Positions 16,769-24,979 of a stretch of DNA of 35,325 nucleotides are shown here, one piece after another (the first letter of the stretch is position 1; each line of letters begins with the position of its first letter). The notes beneath the pieces were generated by a model, which made no database searches, was not told the origin of the DNA, and saw only the letters and a program-made list of their open reading frames with translations. The translations under genes were made by a program, and so were the position numbers. Where the stretch lies: contig JAPOSH010000115.1 of NCBI GenBank assembly GCA_026709815.1, positions 1-35,325 on the forward strand, given 5' to 3'. Source of the DNA: a bacterium. Lineage in GTDB: Bacteria > Actinomycetota > Acidimicrobiia > Acidimicrobiales > Bin134.

Positions 16769-19700
16769 TCAACCGCCGACGGCCAGCCAGGTAACGAGGT
16801 GGACGTCGTCGGAGGTGATCTCAGGTAGCGGGGCGGGAGGGACGTAGGGCTCGAGGCCAAGATCGCGGATGACTTCGAGGATCTTCTCGGCCTGGACAGC
16901 AGGATCGTCGGTGCTGGCCACGGCCACCTGGAAGGTGCGAATGGTGCGCTCGGAGTAGGGGGCGTTGATGGTGTCGATGGCGCGGTCGATGTCGTCTTGG
17001 ACGAGGCCAGGGGGTGGGTGCTGGCGGATGATCTCGGCGGCGCGGCGCAGCCGGGGGGCCAGCTTGGGCTGGAGGTTGGCCGGGTCGGCCATGGCGTTCC
17101 ATCGGTCCACGATGTGGACGCGGGCGGTCTCCCAGGCGGTGAAGGCGCCGGTGACGTCGGCCTCATCGAGACGACGGGGGGTGCTGAAGCCCGCCGGGGG
17201 GCGGGCGGTGTCGAGGCAGGCCAGGGTTTCGTCCCCGACGGGCTCGCCGCCCGCATCGCCGGTTGGCACAAAGCGGAATAACGGTTTGGGATGGTCGCCT
17301 ATTCGGGCGCAGAACACATAGCCGGCCTGCCCGTCGGGCGCGGCCATGCCGGAGCCGGCGCCCCAGGGCAGCGACTTGATCCGCTCGGCGAGGTCGGCGT
17401 CTTCCAGGGCTTGGCGCAGCTCCTGGCGAAACTGCTCGCCCGACAGCGCGCCGCGGGCAGTGCCGCCCCGCTCGAATAGCTCGGGGCTCTCGCGCCGGAG
17501 GCGCTCGATCTCCTCCCGGGTCTCGGCGAAGTTGACCTCGGCCCGCGCCGCCTGCTCGGGCAGCACCTCGCCCACCCCGATGCTGGCCGCCGCTTGGGCG
17601 ATCTTGAGGTGCAAGCGCTTTTCGAGGCCCAGCAGATCGTCGAGGCGGTCGTCGGGGAACACGCAGCGCAGGAACACCTCGGAGTGGTGAGAGCCGATCC
17701 GGTCGATGCGACCGTGGCGCTGCACCAGCCGCATGGGGTTCCAGGGCAGGTCGTAGTTGACGATGTGGCGGGCCTGCTGGAGGTTGACCCCTTCGGCCAA
17801 AACGTCGGTGGTCACCACGATGTCGTAGCGGTCGTCGGCGGCATCAGCCGGGGCGTCGGTGGTGAGGGGGGCGAACCCCCACAGCACCCGCTCCTTGCTC
17901 TCGGCGCCGGTGGCGCCGGACAACGAGGCGATACGCCCCCGATAAGGGGCCAGGCGCTCGTCGGCTTGGGCGGCTTGCACCAGATGCTCGTACACCCAGT
18001 CGACGGTGTCGGCGTAGTAGCTGAAGACGAGCACCTTGCGGCGATTGCGGGCATCGTCGTCGCCGATGCCCTCGGCGGCGGCTTCGGCGGCGATGGCGGC
18101 CAGCTCGTCCACCAGCGCAGCCAGGTTGGGATCGTGGCGGCGGGTCAAGGTGCGGGCCTCGGCGGCGAACGATCTCAGCAGGCCCCGGTCGCGGTCGGCG
18201 TGCTCCCGCAGGCGCCCCACGTCGTATCGGGCGGCGTCGTCGCCGACCCCGACGATGCCGTCCAAAAAGGCGTCGAGCTGCTTGTCGTCGGCTTCGTCGG
18301 AGTCGGTGGCGATCCAGTCGGCCAGGGCCTCGCCGGCCACCACCCGGCCGTTGCCGAGCAGCGACAAGAAGGCGTCGTGGCTTCTGGCCATGCGCTCGCA
18401 GGTCTCGGCGAAGGCGTGGGGCGACGACTCGAACCGCTTGAGCAGGCCCGAGCGCAACAGGCCGGCGAGCTGTATCTCGTAGGTGTCGGCCTGGCGGTCG
18501 AGGCGATACTGCGACGGGCAGTAGCGGGCCAGGCTGAGCGCGCCGGAGTCTTCGGCGCCAGCGTCGGGGTCGAGGGCTCGGGCGAAGCGGTCGAAGAACC
18601 CGGGCATCGCCGCGTCGAGGCTGTAGCTCACCTTGCGGACCCTGGGCGTGGGGAACACGATCTGCTGATCCTGTCCGCCCACCTTGATGGTGTCATTGGG
18701 ATAGAAGCGCTTGACGAAGGCCCGGGTGCGCCGCACCGCCACCGCGTCGAGCACGTCGAACAGGTGCTCGGGGGTCAGGTCGTCGGGGCCTTTGGCCATG
18801 GCGGCGGCGAAGTGGTCGCGCAGCGAGCGAATGCCGACGTCGGCGAAGGCGGCGTCGTTGCGCAGGAAGTAGCCCAGCAGGTGGTAGAGGTCCCACAGGC
18901 TGTTGTTCACCGGGGTGGCGGTGAGCATCACCAGCTTCTTGGGCGGCGACCCGCCCAGCAGTTGCCGCAGCGCTTGGGCCCGCTGGGTGCTGGGGTTGCG
19001 CAGGTTGTGGGCCTCGTCGATCACCACCATGGCGTAGTCGTTGATCGCCGCTTTCAGCTTGACGGCGTCGGTGTGCTCAGGGTTCAGCCGCCCATCGGCC
19101 ATGAGCTCTTCGTACGACACCAGCTCCACCGGCAACAGGTGCTCGGAGATGAACGCCCGCCACGGCCCGTCGCGCAGCGTGGCCGGGGTTATCACCAGCA
19201 CTCGCTGGCGGCGTTCCAGCGCCGCCTCCCGGATCAGCTCTCCGGCCAGGAAGGTCTTGCCCAAGCCGACCTCGTCGGCGATAACCACGCCGTTGTGCTC
19301 CTTCAGGATGCGCCGGGCTCGCCACAGCCCGTCGGACTGGAACGAGGTGAGATGGATCTGGGGCGCACCCTCGTCGGCGGCCTCGGCCTCCAACTCTTCG
19401 CCGTAGAGCTCCCACAGCATCCGCAGGTACACGAGTTGAGGGGCGTGGGGCTCGAAGCGGGCCTCGAACAGGGCGGCCAGGTCGTAGGGGGCGGCCTCGT
19501 CCCACAGCTCGTCGAACCAGTCCCGCACCTGGCCCACCACATGGGGCGAGTAGTTGCCCAGGTTCAGCTCCAAGTTGGCGGCCAGCCCGGCATAGGTGAA
19601 GTTGGACGACCCGGCCACCACCCCGTGCGAGCGATCCCCCACCAGAAAGGCCTTGCCGTGCAAGAACCGCCCCTCCAGACGGCGCACCTGCACCCGGCCC

Positions 19701-20101
19701 GAGCGCAGCCACTCCAGCAGGCGCCGAGCGGCGGCATCGGCCTCGAACGTGAAGCCCAGGTGATCGCGCTCGGCCAGCAGGTTCTGCTCGTGGCCCTCCA
19801 ACGCCCGGCGCAACCGGGTGCGGGCCGCCCGCTGGGGATTGGCCGACTCCGAGCCCAACGCCCGCCGCCGGCTCTCCGGCTGAGCAGGCTCGGCCCCCAA
19901 CAGCAGCCGCACCCCGGTGGCCTGATCCAGCGAATCGGCCAGAAGCGAGTAGCCGCCCACGTTAAAATAGGCGGTGGCGATGTCCACGCCCGCCCCGCCC
20001 ACGAACCCGGTCGCGGCGTGGGAGATGAACCCGCAGAGCGCCTCCGCCACCGTCTGCCCGTCCCGGTTGAGCGCCAGCTCCGGCTTCTCAAACCCGGTCA
20101 T
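16769..20101 (-). CDS. PLD-SNF2 helicase of a restriction/defence module
   Basis: A 1110-residue protein from ATG 20101, preceded by GAGGTGG. The N-terminal phospholipase-D-type nuclease domain has FLHGKAFLVGD (H148, K150) and GSSNFTYAGL (164-173). It is followed by a SNF2-like SF2 helicase with Walker A DEVGLGKT (276-283), DEAH 362-365, LTATPVNN, a C-terminal RecA domain with TTDVLAEGVNLQQA, and motif VI QRHGRIDRIGS. Such fusions act as the translocase/nuclease arm of restriction-like systems. It lies downstream of the adenine methyltransferase gene on the same strand, so the pair should restrict unmodified DNA. DISARM class 1 also joins an SNF2 helicase, an N6-adenine methylase and a PLD protein, but DrmA and DrmB are absent here. 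Confidence 0.88.
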   Translation of the reverse strand: MTGFEKPELALNRDGQTVAEALCGFISHAATGFVGGAGVDIATAYFNVGGYSLLADSLDQATGVRLLLGAEPAQPESRRRALGSESANPQRAARTRLRRALEGHEQNLLAERDHLGFTFEADAAARRLLEWLRSGRVQVRRLEGRFLHGKAFLVGDRSHGVVAGSSNFTYAGLAANLELNLGNYSPHVVGQVRDWFDELWDEAAPYDLAALFEARFEPHAPQLVYLRMLWELYGEELEAEAADEGAPQIHLTSFQSDGLWRARRILKEHNGVVIADEVGLGKTFLAGELIREAALERRQRVLVITPATLRDGPWRAFISEHLLPVELVSYEELMADGRLNPEHTDAVKLKAAINDYAMVVIDEAHNLRNPSTQRAQALRQLLGGSPPKKLVMLTATPVNNSLWDLYHLLGYFLRNDAAFADVGIRSLRDHFAAAMAKGPDDLTPEHLFDVLDAVAVRRTRAFVKRFYPNDTIKVGGQDQQIVFPTPRVRKVSYSLDAAMPGFFDRFARALDPDAGAEDSGALSLARYCPSQYRLDRQADTYEIQLAGLLRSGLLKRFESSPHAFAETCERMARSHDAFLSLLGNGRVVAGEALADWIATDSDEADDKQLDAFLDGIVGVGDDAARYDVGRLREHADRDRGLLRSFAAEARTLTRRHDPNLAALVDELAAIAAEAAAEGIGDDDARNRRKVLVFSYYADTVDWVYEHLVQAAQADERLAPYRGRIASLSGATGAESKERVLWGFAPLTTDAPADAADDRYDIVVTTDVLAEGVNLQQARHIVNYDLPWNPMRLVQRHGRIDRIGSHHSEVFLRCVFPDDRLDDLLGLEKRLHLKIAQAAASIGVGEVLPEQAARAEVNFAETREEIERLRRESPELFERGGTARGALSGEQFRQELRQALEDADLAERIKSLPWGAGSGMAAPDGQAGYVFCARIGDHPKPLFRFVPTGDAGGEPVGDETLACLDTARPPAGFSTPRRLDEADVTGAFTAWETARVHIVDRWNAMADPANLQPKLAPRLRRAAEIIRQHPPPGLVQDDIDRAIDTINAPYSERTIRTFQVAVASTDDPAVQAEKILEVIRDLGLEPYVPPAPLPEITSDDVHLVTWLAVGG

Positions 20102-20188: not shown

Positions 20189-20380
20189 ATGTCGGAAACA
20201 AGCCCCCCTACCAGCAACGACCCAGCCCTCTTTCGACAGGCCCTTGACGGTGCCACAGATTTCGTCGACTTTCTGAACAGGCTGCTCAAACTCGGGTACA
20301 GGGATACACAGCTAATGGAAATCTTCATGGCTGAGCGCCACGGCGATGGATGGGTACCAGAACACACACACCCTGATTGA
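20189..20380 (+). CDS. Small helical protein encoded between the two defence genes
   Basis: A 63-residue frame on the opposite strand to the defence pair, starting at ATG 20189; a TTG at 20159 would add ten residues. The product is amphipathic and helical (DPALFRQALDGATDFVDFL, later TQLMEIFMAERHGDGW) with a histidine-rich end. I know no family. TTGACT occurs at 20155-20160, with the short palindrome CGAGCACTCG downstream, but no well-spaced -10 is evident. It could be a regulator or an accessory protein of the defence system. Local DNA is less GC-rich than the helicase gene. Confidence 0.45.
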   Translation: MSETSPPTSNDPALFRQALDGATDFVDFLNRLLKLGYRDTQLMEIFMAERHGDGWVPEHTHPD

Positions 20381-20441
20381 TGGCTACTACTACCAAGGTT
20401 GTTCTCGACTCTCGATACAAGTGGAGAGAAGTAGCGGGTAT

Positions 20442-21338
20442 TCACTCTAGGAGCCTTTGGAAGTGGGTGAGGACGGCGGCGTGGCGTTCGGCGTAGTCGA
20501 CTGTTTCGCTGAAGGTTTCGTAGATCACGGCCAAATCGTCTTCGTCGAGGCCGTAGAGGTGAGCGACGCAGGCATCGAGTTCGCAAACGAGATCGTGCTT
20601 GACCACCTCGTCGTTCGCCGACCCCACCGGCACCCCCACCTCAGCCGCCCAATCAGCAAAGCGCTCATCAGTTGCCGCCAACCGCCCAGCAATCTCCACC
20701 ACCCGGTCGCGAACAGGGTGGCCCTCACCGGGGTCGGGGATGGGGAAGCTATTGAGAATGTGGAAATTCAAGTTGAGTTCGACAACCCGGCGGGCATACC
20801 AATCCAAGACCATCGACGACAGCACCCCGAGTAGGAATGCCTGATCTGATTCACCGCCCTTGGGCCAAAGTAAGTAGGGCCCCTTATTCGTGATCACTAG
20901 CTCACCGGGCAGCAGAGCTGCAACCACTGTGCGAGTATTCGTACTGTTGGTTATATCGCGAAAAGCAATACGCGGGTTGAGGCAAGGCAGGGTTTCAGGG
21001 TCTTCAATGTGTTCGACAGTGAATTCTGAAAATGGCGACTTGGATGTCCGGTGCTGGCGCTGCCGCTTATCTTGGAGATGATGGGTAATGGCCTCAGCGT
21101 CGACCGAGGCGTAATAGACCCCGGTGTCGGGGTTCCATAGGTCAAACGATGCGCCTTTGTATACCAGCCAGCGACCGTTTTCACCGTTCACGGCTGCTCT
21201 GCCCTCGTCGAGGATGAGTTGGCCCTTGTTGGCCGTGGCGTGGAGTTCTGCGAACGGGCGGACTCTCCACCGTCGAGGACGAAGAGTCGTTTGTCGTTGG
21301 TGGCGTCGAGTTCCCGGTGCGGGCGGACTTTCCACCAT
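20442..21338 (-). CDS. C-terminal target-recognition part of the methyltransferase, currently out of frame
   Basis: The open frame runs from before the ATG at 21338 to the stop at 20442 and in fact extends back through the GACC tract. It encodes the family's C-terminal region: RRWRVRPFAELHATANK, then YKGASFDLWNPDTGVYYAS, NPRIAFRDI, YLLWPKGGESDQAFLLG and NFHILNSFPIPDPGEG. It ends in a helical tail with ACVAHLYGLDEDDL. These are standard parts of Eco57I/PglX-like target-recognition regions, not an independent protein, and no ribosome site precedes the ATG. The frame is one base behind the upstream methyltransferase frame. It joins that frame if the GACC tract gains one unit or loses two, giving a 1513-residue protein. 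Confidence 0.85.
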   Translation of the reverse strand: MVESPPAPGTRRHQRQTTLRPRRWRVRPFAELHATANKGQLILDEGRAAVNGENGRWLVYKGASFDLWNPDTGVYYASVDAEAITHHLQDKRQRQHRTSKSPFSEFTVEHIEDPETLPCLNPRIAFRDITNSTNTRTVVAALLPGELVITNKGPYLLWPKGGESDQAFLLGVLSSMVLDWYARRVVELNLNFHILNSFPIPDPGEGHPVRDRVVEIAGRLAATDERFADWAAEVGVPVGSANDEVVKHDLVCELDACVAHLYGLDEDDLAVIYETFSETVDYAERHAAVLTHFQRLLE

Positions 21339-24300
21339 CGAGGATGAACCTGTGCTTGTCGATCGTTGCGTTGAGATCGCCTTGCAGCGGTCTGGCCCTC
21401 CAAGTCCGATAAAATGGTCGGTCGGTCGGTCGGTCGGTCGGTCGGTCGGTCGGTCGGTCGGTCGGTCGGCTCCGCGTCGAGGCGAGGGTGTTGCTTCATC
21501 TTGCGCCAGACGCGAAATGCCGCCCTATTGGGCAGTTCGGGGAAAGAAGCCGTGGCCGACCATGTGGTGAATTCGGTGACTGGTACTAGTTCGGGCTTGC
21601 CATCTACTAGCTCGCAGAAGTTGGCCAGAGAGCTGGCCGGGCCGGGGTAGATCGCTACATAGGGTTCGTCAGGGTCGCCCTCAAAGCCACCCCCGGGGCT
21701 CGGTTCGGCGATTGAGCTTGCAGCCGGCGACAAGGGCGACGGAGTAGCGGCCGTCAACCCCGTCGAAGGCCCACTGCTTGGTGTTGAGGCAGGTGACGAC
21801 GGAAAGCACCGGGTGACTGCCACCAACGCCACCGTGTAGGAGTTGTGAACCCCCTCGAACACCCAGCCCTTGTGATTGATAACCGTCGCCATCGACATCT
21901 GCCGTAGTAGACTTGCTGTCTGATGCTGTCTGATGCTGTCTGATGCTGTCTGATGCTGTCTGATGCTGTCTGATGCTGTCTGATGCTGTCTGATGCTGTC
22001 TGATGCTGTCTGATGCTTCAGGGCTTCGGTGCGCCAGCGAGCCATTCCGTCGGCATTGGCCGCGGTTCGCGGCAGTACCATTCCGATTCTTCCGCCTTCT
22101 CTGCACAGGTTCAGGTTTGCCCACGCGAACGCTTGGTAATAGTCCGTCCGCCCTGAGCCCAGCCCGGGAAAGGCTCTACGCAGCAGCTTCCGCATGTCGT
22201 CGGCCAGTTCCAGCTCAGCTTGGAACTGATCCTCTAGGTCTGGTCTGGTCTGGCGAAACCTGGTGATCTGAGCGTTCATGCGGTTGATAGGCAGACCGCG
22301 GATTCCAGGCAGGTGCATTCCCCACCAGGCGTGCTCCTGGACCACCACCTGCTCCCATGGGGGATTGCCAACGAGGCAGTCGAAACCAGGGCGGTCTCGC
22401 AAGAAAACCTCGGGGAACGCTGCGGGGAAGTGGACGGGCTGGAAGGCGCTGACGGTGCCGACGACTGCCTCGGCCTGTGACCTCAATAAAAAGGACGCTT
22501 CGTCGAACCTCTCGGGAAGCGCCCCCCTGCCCGCCCGGTGAGCGACTATCAGATCAAAAAGCGCTCTGGCTCCGGCCACATCCTCTCGAGCCTGTAAGTG
22601 CGCTTCACGGGCCTCGTCGATCTCTCGCTTAGTGGCGTCTGAGGTCCGTCCGAGCCTGGCCAACGCCGACCAGGAGCGGTCGAGCATCGCCGATACCTGC
22701 TCGTGAAACATGCTCGGTTTGTGGGATGCGCCCTGCGGGTCGAAAGCCGCCGCCGCCTCATCAAGAGTGCCCACCCCGGTGAGGCTGTCGCCGCAGACCA
22801 GGTTGTGGTCTAAGAAGCTGAGGGGCAGGCCGGCCACGAAGGTGTGGACCCAGATGGCGAGGCGGGCCAGCTCGACGGCGACGCGGTTCTTGTCCACGCC
22901 GTAGATGCAATGGCGGGCCACCTGGCGGCGCAGCAGCGAGCTGGACTCGATCTCCACCCCATCGGCCAACTCTCCCAGCGCACCCAGGGCCGCGGCGCGC
23001 AGGCGGTTCAGCTCGGCGGTCACCGCCGGCACCGGGTGCAACGCCAGCCATCCCGACAGGCGGGCCTCGATGCGGTCGACCGCGGCTACCAGGAAATGGG
23101 CCGAGCCCATGGCGATGTCGGCACAGCGGAAGTCGAAGAACGCCTCGGCCAGCGCGGCGTCGTCGCCCGCCTCCCGCAGCTCATCCAGCCGGGCGATGTG
23201 ATCGTCGAGCGCCGGCTCCAGCGCGTTGCTGAGCAAGTGCTCCACCGCGAACGGCTTGGTGAAATAAGAGCCGGTGGCCTTGCGCACCCCGGAGCGGTTG
23301 TGGAAATACACCGAGCCCGCCTCCACCTCCACCGCATCGCCCTCAGCGGCGGGCACATACTGCTCTTTGCCCTTGACCGCCTTGACGGCCAGGTCGTCTT
23401 GGGCCACCGACAGCTTCGACTCCAAAAGGCCCTCATAGATGGTGCCGAACTCCCGCACCGACAGCGACCGGAAGTCCACCGGCCCCACCCCTTCGGGCCC
23501 CTCGTCCACCAGCACCGCCGACAGGGCGGGGCCGAACTCGGCATTGGTGAGCTCGATTTCGGCGATGGCCGCCCCCGACGGGCTCACCTGGGCATCGGCG
23601 GAGAACAGGCCGCCGTTGTAGGCAGGCACCCCCCAATCGGCGTTGCCGTGGTTCACCGCATCCCAGAGCTGGTTCACGTCGCCCCATAAGTCGGTGGCCC
23701 GTCCGTCGTAGCCGGCCCGGCCCTCGCGGCGGTTATCGGCCAGCCGTCGGGCGATGCGCGACAGGGAGTGGTCGGCGTAGCGGCCGTTGGTGCGATACGG
23801 CAGCAGATCCTTGTCCTCGGCGTAGGCCACGAACAGCACCCGGAACAGCACCACCATGACCTGCTCATAGGCCGCGGCCAGCTCGCCCTCGCTCAGTTCA
23901 CCGCCAGGCTGGGAACCCCCCGCAATATATCTATCTATGGCATCTCTGGCGGGCCGAGCAGCGCCGAGGCGGGCGGCCACCGCCCGGGCCAAAGCCGGCA
24001 CCGTCTGGTGGTACACCCGCTCGCGCAGCCGCACCGCCAATTCGGCCACGAAGTCCCCCGACCGCTCCAGGATCTGGCTGAGCATGCCGCCATCGGCCAG
24101 AGCCTCAGCGGAGAACAGCAAGTGGAGGTAGCCGGCCAACTCGGTCGGGACCAGCGACAGGTTCAGCTCCACGAAGGTCTCAGCCCGGCCTTTGCGGCCC
24201 ACACCGGTGTCGGGGCGGGCGGCGTAGAGGCGGATCTCCGAGGCTCGGGTGAGCAGCACCCACTCCACCCGATGCTGGTCGGCCAACGCCAGCGCCCGAG

Positions 24301-24979
24301 ACACCGGCGAGGCGCTGTCGAACCGGCTCGACGGCGCCTCGAACGGCTCGTCCTCGTCGCAGAACACGGCCACGGCGTGGTTGCGTCCCCCGATGGTGAG
24401 CATCGAGGCGTTGGAAGCCAGCGATTGGATCTGAAAGCCCAGCCCCTCCACCAAACGGCGGCCCCGGCGGCCCAAAAGCGGCAGGGCCCGGCGCGTGGCT
24501 TCGGGCCAGTCGCTCCGCTCGGGCACGCCGGCCCGGAGCTCCTGGGTGGCCAGCAGGCCCACATTGCGGAGTCCGGGAAAGGGGGACTCCAACTCCGGCA
24601 AGGCCGCCAGCAAAAAGCGGGTGGCAGCATGGTGGCTGGGCTCGCTCAGGGCCACCTCGGCCAGGCGCTCGGCCTGCGACACCTCGATGCCGTGATGCAC
24701 CACCGGCGGCTCGCCCACCGGACCGCACAGCGACACCCGCTGACCCTCGGCGGTGGGATAGAACGCCGCCAGCAGCACCGGGCTGGCCCGGCCCGCCCGC
24801 CGCTTCGACCACGCCTCGCGCAGGTGGGCGGCTCGGGGCTGGGCCGCAGCCCGAACCAGGGCCACCTCCAAGCCGTTGGGCGCCCCCTGGACGAACACCC
24901 CCGCCGGGATCAGCAACGATGGAAACCCCGCCGGCGCCGACCAGGCGATGGGATCCCGGTCTAGGAGAAAGTCGTCCAT
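21188..24979 (-). CDS. Phase-variable adenine-specific DNA methyltransferase (Eco57I/PglX-like), frame as sequenced
   Basis: From ATG 24979 the frame reads 1263 residues and stops at 21188. After a long N-terminal region (VLFRVLFVAYAEDKDLLPY, ALADQHRVEWVLLT) comes SYFTKPFAVEHLL and a SAM-binding motif I DIAMGSAHFL (from D621). The N6-adenine motif NPPW is at 872-875, then the target-recognition region. Residues ~988-1022 come from a 10-bp repeat tract (DSIRQHQTAS) and ~1171-1188 from a GACC tract (TDRP). The last ~75 residues are frameshifted relative to the family, because the conserved C-terminus lies in another frame at 20442-21338. As sequenced, the product lacks most of its target-recognition end and is probably OFF. 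It precedes the PLD-SNF2 helicase gene. The ribosome site AAGGG is 10 bases before the start. Confidence 0.88.
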   Translation of the reverse strand: MDDFLLDRDPIAWSAPAGFPSLLIPAGVFVQGAPNGLEVALVRAAAQPRAAHLREAWSKRRAGRASPVLLAAFYPTAEGQRVSLCGPVGEPPVVHHGIEVSQAERLAEVALSEPSHHAATRFLLAALPELESPFPGLRNVGLLATQELRAGVPERSDWPEATRRALPLLGRRGRRLVEGLGFQIQSLASNASMLTIGGRNHAVAVFCDEDEPFEAPSSRFDSASPVSRALALADQHRVEWVLLTRASEIRLYAARPDTGVGRKGRAETFVELNLSLVPTELAGYLHLLFSAEALADGGMLSQILERSGDFVAELAVRLRERVYHQTVPALARAVAARLGAARPARDAIDRYIAGGSQPGGELSEGELAAAYEQVMVVLFRVLFVAYAEDKDLLPYRTNGRYADHSLSRIARRLADNRREGRAGYDGRATDLWGDVNQLWDAVNHGNADWGVPAYNGGLFSADAQVSPSGAAIAEIELTNAEFGPALSAVLVDEGPEGVGPVDFRSLSVREFGTIYEGLLESKLSVAQDDLAVKAVKGKEQYVPAAEGDAVEVEAGSVYFHNRSGVRKATGSYFTKPFAVEHLLSNALEPALDDHIARLDELREAGDDAALAEAFFDFRCADIAMGSAHFLVAAVDRIEARLSGWLALHPVPAVTAELNRLRAAALGALGELADGVEIESSSLLRRQVARHCIYGVDKNRVAVELARLAIWVHTFVAGLPLSFLDHNLVCGDSLTGVGTLDEAAAAFDPQGASHKPSMFHEQVSAMLDRSWSALARLGRTSDATKREIDEAREAHLQAREDVAGARALFDLIVAHRAGRGALPERFDEASFLLRSQAEAVVGTVSAFQPVHFPAAFPEVFLRDRPGFDCLVGNPPWEQVVVQEHAWWGMHLPGIRGLPINRMNAQITRFRQTRPDLEDQFQAELELADDMRKLLRRAFPGLGSGRTDYYQAFAWANLNLCREGGRIGMVLPRTAANADGMARWRTEALKHQTASDSIRQHQTASDSIRQHQTASDSIRQHQTASLLRQMSMATVINHKGWVFEGVHNSYTVALVAVTRCFPSSPASTPSSGPSTGLTAATPSPLSPAASSIAEPSPGGGFEGDPDEPYVAIYPGPASSLANFCELVDGKPELVPVTEFTTWSATASFPELPNRAAFRVWRKMKQHPRLDAEPTDRPTDRPTDRPTDRPTILSDLEGQTAARRSQRNDRQAQVHPRWWKVRPHRELDATNDKRLFVLDGGESARSQNSTPRPTRANSSSTRAEQP
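21211..21406 (-). repeat. Three imperfect tandem copies of a ~65-bp coding segment, one in each frame
   Basis: On the minus strand, copies 2 (21340-21276) and 3 (21275-21211) are exactly 65 bp and agree at about 46 positions by hand count; copy 1 (about 21406-21341) is more diverged. Each encodes the same element but in a different frame: TWRARPLQGDLNATIDKHRF, WWKVRPHRELDATNDKRLF and RWRVRPFAELHATANKGQL. Because 65 leaves remainder two on division by three, each copy shifts the frame. Only the frame of copy 3 continues into the conserved C-terminus. Confidence 0.85.
21416..21467. repeat. Tetranucleotide tract, 13 perfect GGTC units (GACC in the coding sense)
   Basis: Thirteen uninterrupted units, followed by GG and then a mismatch. 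The tract lies inside the methyltransferase reading frame (peptide repeat TDRP). All frames through it are free of stops. A change of one unit shifts the frame, as in known phase-variable methyltransferase genes with tetranucleotide tracts. By frame arithmetic, full length requires 14 or 11 units rather than 13. Confidence 0.97.
21718..21895 (-). repeat. 92-bp-spaced imperfect duplication inside the methyltransferase gene
   Basis: One copy (about 21895-21810) encodes INHKGWVFEGVHNSYTVALV in the main frame. The next (about 21803-21718) encodes LNTKQWAFDGVDGRYSVALV in another frame. The codons for the matching tryptophans begin at 21865 and 21773, 92 bases apart, which is not a multiple of three. 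In the main frame the second copy is read as a serine/proline/alanine-rich low-complexity stretch of about 38 residues, longer than relatives would be expected to have here. Confidence 0.75.
21914..22017. repeat. 10-bp tandem repeat, 9 full TGATGCTGTC units plus partial ends
   Basis: Nine perfect units (21921-22010) are flanked by 7-base partial units on both sides, 104 bp in all. In the coding sense the unit is GACAGCATCA, and three units encode DSIRQHQTAS in every frame with no stop. As 10 is not a multiple of three, each unit gained or lost changes the frame. In the sequenced state the frame after the tract is the productive one; both alternatives hit stops soon after (about 21754 and 21681). 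Confidence 0.97.

What the first reader, a model, noticed from the sequence alone, without database searches (positions are those of the whole stretch)
21211..21406. Three tandem versions of one target-recognition element, each in a different frame
Immediately after the GACC tract, the same ~25-residue element (W-x-x-R-P followed by D/H-A-T-x-D/N-K) occurs three times at ~65-bp spacing, one per frame. Whichever phase the GACC tract adopts, the ribosome reads exactly one intact version; only the third continues to the full C-terminus. The copies are diverged (about 46 of 65 positions alike for copies 2 and 3), so this is not recent slippage. It may be a recombination scar from paralogous alleles, or an arrangement in which each phase presents a different recognition element.
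Basis: partly seen in the sequence, partly recalled or inferred. Interest (0 to 1): 0.78.

Follow-up and report, generated by a model that had tools for sequence, protein, structure and literature searches.

The report
Frame-staggered recognition cassettes behind slippery tracts
A probable phage-defence DNA-methylating enzyme in sponge-associated bacteria carries two or three alternative versions of short segments in different reading frames behind mutable DNA repeats, so a change in repeat number selects which version is translated, and one version appears to be rejoined to the rest of the protein by a ribosomal frameshift signal so far known from the gene for release factor 2.

Summary
Behind the (GACC)n tract of an Eco57I-type methyltransferase gene (minus strand) lie three WxxRP..AT element copies (E2), one per frame.

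It is not decay. The layout recurs in about two dozen related loci. Every locus with a tract here has at least two E2 copies; loci without one have a single copy. Each copy is under purifying selection only in its own frame (pN/pS 0.21-0.45). The three types match alleles carried singly by intact relatives, and their order differs between species.

A (AGCATCAGAC)n tract is followed by two staggered copies of another element (E1; pN/pS 0.08 in f0, 0.15 in f2). The second copy's frame ends at CGGGGG-TGG-CTT-TGA, a release-factor-2-type +1 frameshift site, invariant from GGTGGCTTTGA in 14/14 loci. Selection switches from f2 to f0 exactly there.

At E2 the last copy is fused to the C-terminal domain, or its frame ends at an NTGA stop-start overlap with the C-terminal ORF (20442-21191).

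Best reading: phase variation selects among alternative DNA-recognition segments. Frameshifting, reinitiation and DNA specificity are inferred, not shown. Caveat: the tract phase that would enter E1 copy 2 was not seen in 12 assemblies.

The parts
21188..24979 (-). Eco57I-type adenine methyltransferase (type IIG-like), N-terminal part as read in the assembled phase: 1263 aa, E1 copy 1, E2 copy H, ends at the TGA of GTGA
   Evidence: PF07669; PADLOC REase_MTase_IIG 5.9e-197
21914..22017 (-). tract 1, 10-bp unit x10.4 ((AGCATCAGAC)n on the coding strand)
   Evidence: replaced by other units or poly-G in relatives
21815..21892 (-). E1 copy 1 (MATVINHKGWVFEGVHNSYTVALVAV), frame f0
   Evidence: pN/pS 0.08 in f0 over 14 loci
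21723..21800 (-). E1 copy 2 (VVTCLNTKQWAFDGVDGRYSVALVAG), frame f2, 92 bp after copy 1
   Evidence: pN/pS 0.15 in f2, 1.97 in f0
21681..21695 (-). RF2/prfB-type +1 frameshift motif CGGGGG-TGG-CTT-TGA at the end of the copy-2 frame; a +1 shift gives ..RGWL|EGDPDEPYVAIYPGP
   Evidence: GGTGGCTTTGA identical in 14 loci; lost in G370 together with tract 1 and an intact copy 2
21416..21469 (-). tract 2, (GACC)13.5
21343..21402 (-). E2 copy 1, type Q (WRARPLQGDLNATIDK..), frame f2 relative to the C-terminal part
   Evidence: pN/pS 0.21 in own frame over 11 loci
21275..21334 (-). E2 copy 2, type H (WKVRPHRELDATNDK..), frame f1; in frame in this assembly
   Evidence: pN/pS 0.40 in own frame
21210..21269 (-). 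E2 copy 3, type A (WRVRPFAELHATANK..), frame f0, fused to the C-terminal part
   Evidence: pN/pS 0.45 in own frame
21188..21191 (-). GTGA: stop TGA of frame f1 overlapping start GTG of the C-terminal ORF; NTGA kept in most relatives
20442..21191 (-). C-terminal ORF (249 aa, VNGENGRWLVYKGASFDLWNPDTG..), fused in phase f0, otherwise a separate overlapping ORF
16769..20101 (-). neighbouring PLD-SNF2 helicase, probable partner

Best explanation
This is a phase-variable methyltransferase of a probable phage-defence system in which two slippery tracts each control a stack of alternative protein segments laid out in staggered frames. A change in repeat number alters the frame in which the ribosome enters the stack, so a different diverged version of the segment is read correctly and the others are read as Pro/Ser/Thr/Arg-rich linker. 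SHOWN (sequence and comparative data): the tracts, the staggered copies, selection on each copy only in its own frame, the change of selected frame at CTT-TGA, the conserved NTGA overlap, and tract-length differences between otherwise identical loci. INFERRED: at site 1, phase f0 reads E1 copy 1 straight into the rest of the protein, phase f2 reads copy 2 and shifts +1 at an RF2-type CTT-TGA signal to rejoin the same downstream frame, and phase f1 is OFF. At site 2, phase f0 gives a one-chain enzyme with the last E2 version, and phase f1 ends the N-terminal chain after another version with the C-terminal domain restarted at the overlapping NTG as a second chain; a third version in f2 gives a chain ending just after the overlap or further away. 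INFERRED with less certainty: E1 and E2 are parts of the target-recognition region, so the switch changes DNA specificity, which would let a population vary its epigenetic mark and phage restriction.
For: Copies and frames. E1 pair 92 bp apart in 15 loci of several genera. pN/pS copy 1: 0.08 in f0 against 2.3 and 3.2; copy 2: 0.15 in f2 against 2.0 and 2.9; tail of copy 2 before the stop: 0.40 in f2; after CTT-TGA: 0.36 in f0. GGTGGCTTTGA identical in 14/14 although TTT is 19% of Phe codons and GGT 7% of Gly codons in these two genes; the layout equals the published prfB motif (AGGGGG, 3 nt, CTTTGA; PMC12421855). G370 lacks tract 1, has TAG inside copy 2 and CCT-TGA in place of CTT-TGA, and is one 1534-aa ORF. 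E2: pN/pS in own frame 0.21 (Q), 0.40 (H), 0.45 (A), about 0.8-2.2 in other frames. Spacings 65, 68, 74, 77, all 2 mod 3. Tract 2 accompanies at least two E2 copies throughout; one-copy relatives have no tract. Q, H and A types occur singly in intact relatives; order is Q-H-A in the window and Q-A-H in L036. NTGA, or another stop within 8 nt of the C-terminal start, in nearly all loci and with ATG, GTG and TTG all used. G012 and G019 have no substitution in 1032 aligned bases but differ in both tracts. Switching of specificity by a tract and a second TRD-like segment is proven in H. pylori Hpy99XIV (PMC3936762).
Against: No expression, mass-spectrometry or methylome data. In 12 loci with a readable tract 1 the entry phase is f0 (6) or f1 (6), never f2, so the phase that reads E1 copy 2 has not been seen; the loci are not independent and poly-G lengths in short-read MAGs are unreliable. 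The window has TGA-G, not the prfB TGA-C. The prfB motif gives only about 6% frameshifting in M. smegmatis, and these genomes' own prfB is one open frame (PMC12421855). The f2 frame at E2 has no conserved ending. The structure model was too poor (pLDDT 58) to place E1 and E2 on DNA, and no solved structure matched significantly.
Confidence: 0.74

Rival explanations
1. Ordinary ON/OFF phase variation: only the phase reading the last E2 copy gives a working protein; the other copies are old tandem duplications tolerated because tract slippage compensates any frame change.
For: 65- and 68-bp repeats behind a tract are easily tolerated; only one phase gives a single long chain in the window; a few copies are decayed (G020 middle copy, L043 copy 1).
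Against: Upstream copies evolve as coding sequence in their own frames over 9-14 loci; types match alleles of intact relatives; NTGA and CTTTGA are conserved.
Confidence: 0.12
2. Silent-cassette store: upstream copies are archives that recombine into the expressed last copy, rather than being translated.
For: Cassette order differs between species (Q-H-A in the window, Q-A-H in L036); H and A copies within a locus are 40-52/60 identical.
Against: A silent store would not need purifying selection in a particular frame, a constant 2 mod 3 stagger, or frameshift and stop-start signals. May operate in addition to the main model.
Confidence: 0.08
3. Frame switching is carried mainly by transcriptional slippage on the tracts, so every cell makes a mixture of versions whatever the DNA phase.
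For: Poly-G of 8-23 occurs at site 1 or site 2 in many relatives; would remove the problem that f2 is never seen at E1.
Against: Other loci use 4-, 5-, 7-, 8- and 10-bp units, on which RNA polymerase is not expected to slip. It changes only how frames are chosen; the CTT-TGA join is still needed.
Confidence: 0.06

Closest known systems
H. pylori type IIG enzymes Hpy99XIV (JHP1272) and HpyAXVI (Krebes et al., PMC3936762)
   Same: Type IIG-like gene with two mutable tracts; a tract placed before a second, diverged copy of part of the recognition domain; switching proven there to change the methylated motif.
   Different: There the first tract is an ON/OFF switch and the second adds or omits one extra domain at the C-terminus. 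Here both tracts face stacks of 2-3 alternatives in staggered frames, with an RF2-type frameshift motif and NTGA overlaps joining them to the rest.
C-terminal phase variation in Neisseria and Helicobacter (PMC5320596)
   Same: A 3' tract switches the C-terminal sequence among three frames, sometimes fusing to the next ORF.
   Different: The alternative ends described there are not reported to be versions of one element kept under selection in each frame.
prfB (RF2) programmed +1 frameshift cassette
   Same: SD-like G-rich hexamer, 3-nt gap, CTT-TGA, +1 change into the downstream coding frame.
   Different: Different gene, in a phylum where 2,658 surveyed prfB genes lack the motif (PMC12421855); here it joins a phase-selected segment rather than sensing RF2; TGA is followed by G in the window.
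DISARM class 1 (drmD + drmMI) and PLD-SNF2 helicase systems
   Same: Adenine methyltransferase beside an SNF2 helicase, with significant profile similarity.
   Different: DrmD below NCBIfam cut-off (185.7 of 610); the methyltransferase matches type IIG better than DrmMI; no DISARM partner found among the neighbouring ORFs tested.

Membership tests
prfB-type +1 programmed frameshift site | G-rich SD-like hexamer 3 nt upstream of CTT-TGA | tested here: met
   CGGGGG-TGG-CTTTGA in the window; AGGGGG or AGGAGG in many relatives
prfB-type +1 programmed frameshift site | Coding frame changes +1 at the site | tested here: met
   selection in f2 before and f0 after
prfB-type +1 programmed frameshift site | C after TGA (poor termination context) | tested here: not met
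   TGA-G in the window and most loci; TGA-C only in G362, TGA-A in G011
prfB-type +1 programmed frameshift site | Measured frameshifting | not testable with these tools
   needs a reporter or mass spectrometry
Type IIG restriction-modification enzyme | Eco57I-type adenine methyltransferase domain with NPPW | tested here: met
   PF07669 E=3.7e-13; PADLOC REase_MTase_IIG E=5.9e-197; NPPW in the translation
Type IIG restriction-modification enzyme | N-terminal nuclease in the same chain | not tested
   no Pfam nuclease match; no specific test made
Type IIG restriction-modification enzyme | C-terminal target-recognition domain | tested here: inconclusive
   TaqI_C match in one of eight relatives only, E=0.2; model confidence too low
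Phase-variable (contingency) gene | Repeat tract inside the ORF whose length varies between close relatives and changes the frame | tested here: met
   G012 vs G019: no substitutions, both tracts differ; different E1 entry phases
Phase-variable (contingency) gene | Switching within a clonal population | not testable with these tools
   no reads available
DISARM | drmA, drmB and drmC partners | tested here: not met
   no hits among nine neighbouring ORFs; contig limited to 35 kb

The most novel reading that the evidence does not exclude
A previously undescribed way of making alternative proteins in bacteria: mutable tracts choose among frame-staggered, individually selected protein cassettes, and an RF2-type +1 frameshift signal plus stop-start overlaps act as joins that return each chosen cassette to the common downstream part. 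It would be the first use of the prfB frameshift cassette outside release factor 2 that I know of, in a phylum that dropped it from prfB.
Probability: 0.58. Interest if true: 0.92.

Novelty: new variant of a known kind. Interest (0 to 1): 0.82.

Why it matters
Phase-variable methyltransferases are usually described as switching ON and OFF, or switching specificity by DNA recombination. Here a simple repeat could step one gene through several specificities, two sites multiplying each other, without recombination. The RF2-type frameshift motif in an Actinomycetota defence gene is a directly testable exception to the finding that this phylum lacks the motif in prfB. Annotation pipelines will call such genes broken, so the arrangement may be under-reported.

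Tried and rejected
Decay: rejected by per-frame pN/pS. Paralogous donor elsewhere in the genome: none found in the 89%-complete MAG. The bare motif as proof of frameshifting: rejected, because five other genomic matches that I read had no E1 nearby and looked like chance in coding DNA; the case rests on the frame hand-over. PRF at the E2 site: no slippery heptamer or CTT-TGA seen, so stop-start overlap is preferred. Structure: AlphaFold2 on eight relatives gave mean pLDDT 58, not used. PDB sequence search: nothing significant. N-terminal identity figures printed are misaligned and were ignored. The broad-taxon search through L-handles had to be redone with G-handles.

Full report
The finding lies at the 3' end of a minus-strand gene for an Eco57I-type adenine methyltransferase (start 24979; PF07669, PADLOC type IIG), next to a PLD-SNF2 helicase gene (16769-20101). 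The window is from a MAG placed in one genus with a relative whose public record is named Candidatus Poriferisocius (Acidimicrobiia; the L035 contig length equals that of G011:C210).

Observation. Three copies of WxxRP..AT(x)DK follow the (GACC)n tract at 68- and 65-bp spacing, one in each frame, with the stated 46/65 agreement of copies 2 and 3. In shuffled sequence the best agreement over any offset was 35/65 in 300 trials. In the assembled phase the long ORF reads the second copy (type H) and stops at 21188.

A second case in the same gene. Upstream, a 10-bp tract (21914-22017) is followed by two copies of another element, MATVINHKGWVFEGVHNSYTVALVAV in frame f0 and VVTCLNTKQWAFDGVDGRYSVALVAG in frame f2, 92 bp apart.

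Conservation. The same two sites carry tracts of different units in relatives: 10-mers or poly-G at site 1, and GACC, GTCC/GACC, CT, CGAGC, CAGC, CAGCACC, an 8-mer or poly-G/C at site 2. The E1 pair is found in 15 loci, 92 bp apart in each. Staggered E2 copies are found in about two dozen loci, including two Longimicrobiales and one Pseudomonadales MAG. Every locus with a tract at site 2 has at least two E2 copies, and loci with one copy have no tract there. Single-E1 loci likewise lack tract 1. Most matched Longimicrobiales are intact one-copy genes, so the staggered layout is derived there.

Selection by frame. For E1 over 14 loci, pN/pS is 0.08 in f0 for copy 1 and 0.15 in f2 for copy 2; the other frames give 2.0-3.2. 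The tail of copy 2 keeps frame f2 (0.40), and after CTT-TGA the selected frame is f0 (0.36). For E2, own-frame pN/pS is 0.21 (Q), 0.45 (A) and 0.40 (H), against about 0.8-2.2 in other frames. All copies are therefore, or recently were, translated in their own frames. The sequences are related by descent, so these ratios are descriptive rather than formal tests.

The frameshift motif. The f2 frame of E1 copy 2 ends in a G-rich hexamer, TGG, CTT and TGA. GGTGGCTTTGA is identical in 14 loci, although in f0 it contains a GGT and a TTT codon that are rare in these genes (GGT 11 of 164 Gly, TTT 16 of 85 Phe). The published prfB consensus is AGGGGG, three bases, CTTTGA (PMC12421855). A +1 shift here enters exactly the frame selected downstream. 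In G370 tract 1 is gone, copy 2 has an in-frame TAG and CTT has become CCT: all the parts are lost together. The bare motif also occurs a few times per genome by chance, so the frame hand-over, not the motif alone, is the evidence. The genomes' own prfB has no internal stop, as reported for all surveyed Actinomycetota, and M. smegmatis shifts at only about 6% (PMC12421855), so efficiency here is open.

How E2 copies meet the C-terminal part. In one group (window, G011, G004, G008, G020, L036, L037, G339, G444) the last copy is in the C-terminal frame and fused. In the WRFRP group the C-terminal part is a separate ORF. In nearly all loci frame f1 ends at a stop overlapping a start codon of the C-terminal frame, usually NTGA with ATG, GTG or TTG; G020 is the exception, because its f1 copy is decayed. 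In the Longimicrobiales and the Pseudomonadales MAG the overlap falls just after the E2 motif. Termination-reinitiation giving a two-chain protein is the natural reading, but it is not shown.

Meaning of the types. Q (QGDLNAT), H (RELDAT) and A (ELHAT) occur singly in intact relatives and in different orders in staggered loci, as expected of interchangeable specificity alleles. The closest tested case is H. pylori Hpy99XIV/HpyAXVI, where a tract brings in a second copy of part of the recognition domain and changes the methylated motif (PMC3936762). I found no description of staggered cassettes or of an RF2-type join in the papers searched; that library is incomplete.

Phase variation. G012 and G019 differ by no substitution in 1032 aligned bases of this region but by two G in tract 1 and three CT units in tract 2, and enter E1 in different phases. 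All three entry phases are seen at E2; at E1 only f0 and f1 are seen in 12 loci. This absence of f2 is the main weakness of the model for E1 copy 2.

Confidence. Observation and conservation are near certain. Translation of each copy in its own frame is very likely. Programmed +1 frameshifting at CTT-TGA is likely (about 0.8). Stop-start coupling is likely (about 0.7). Change of DNA specificity is plausible (about 0.65).

Noticed in passing
L097 (G012), L084 (G019), L093 (G007), L092 (G013b): WRFRP-group relatives carry two tandem copies of the separate C-terminal ORF; in G012 and G019 the first has a poly-G tract near its end, and in G012 one frame after it ends at an ATGA overlapping the start of the second copy: a possible third switch site.
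   Followed up: partly
E1 entry phases, 12 loci: Tract 1 places the ribosome in f0 (6) or f1 (6), never in f2, the phase that would read E1 copy 2.
   Followed up: partly
L084 and L097: Two genomes treated as different species share this region without a substitution in 1032 aligned bases, suggesting recent transfer of the system.
   Followed up: no
L116 (G362) and L091 (G013a): Two interrupted homopolymer tracts lie close together at one site (poly-C at site 2 in G362, poly-G at site 1 in G013a), possibly tract turnover.
   Followed up: no
window 20190-20381 (+): A short plus-strand ORF-like stretch between the helicase and the methyltransferase genes; not examined.
   Followed up: no
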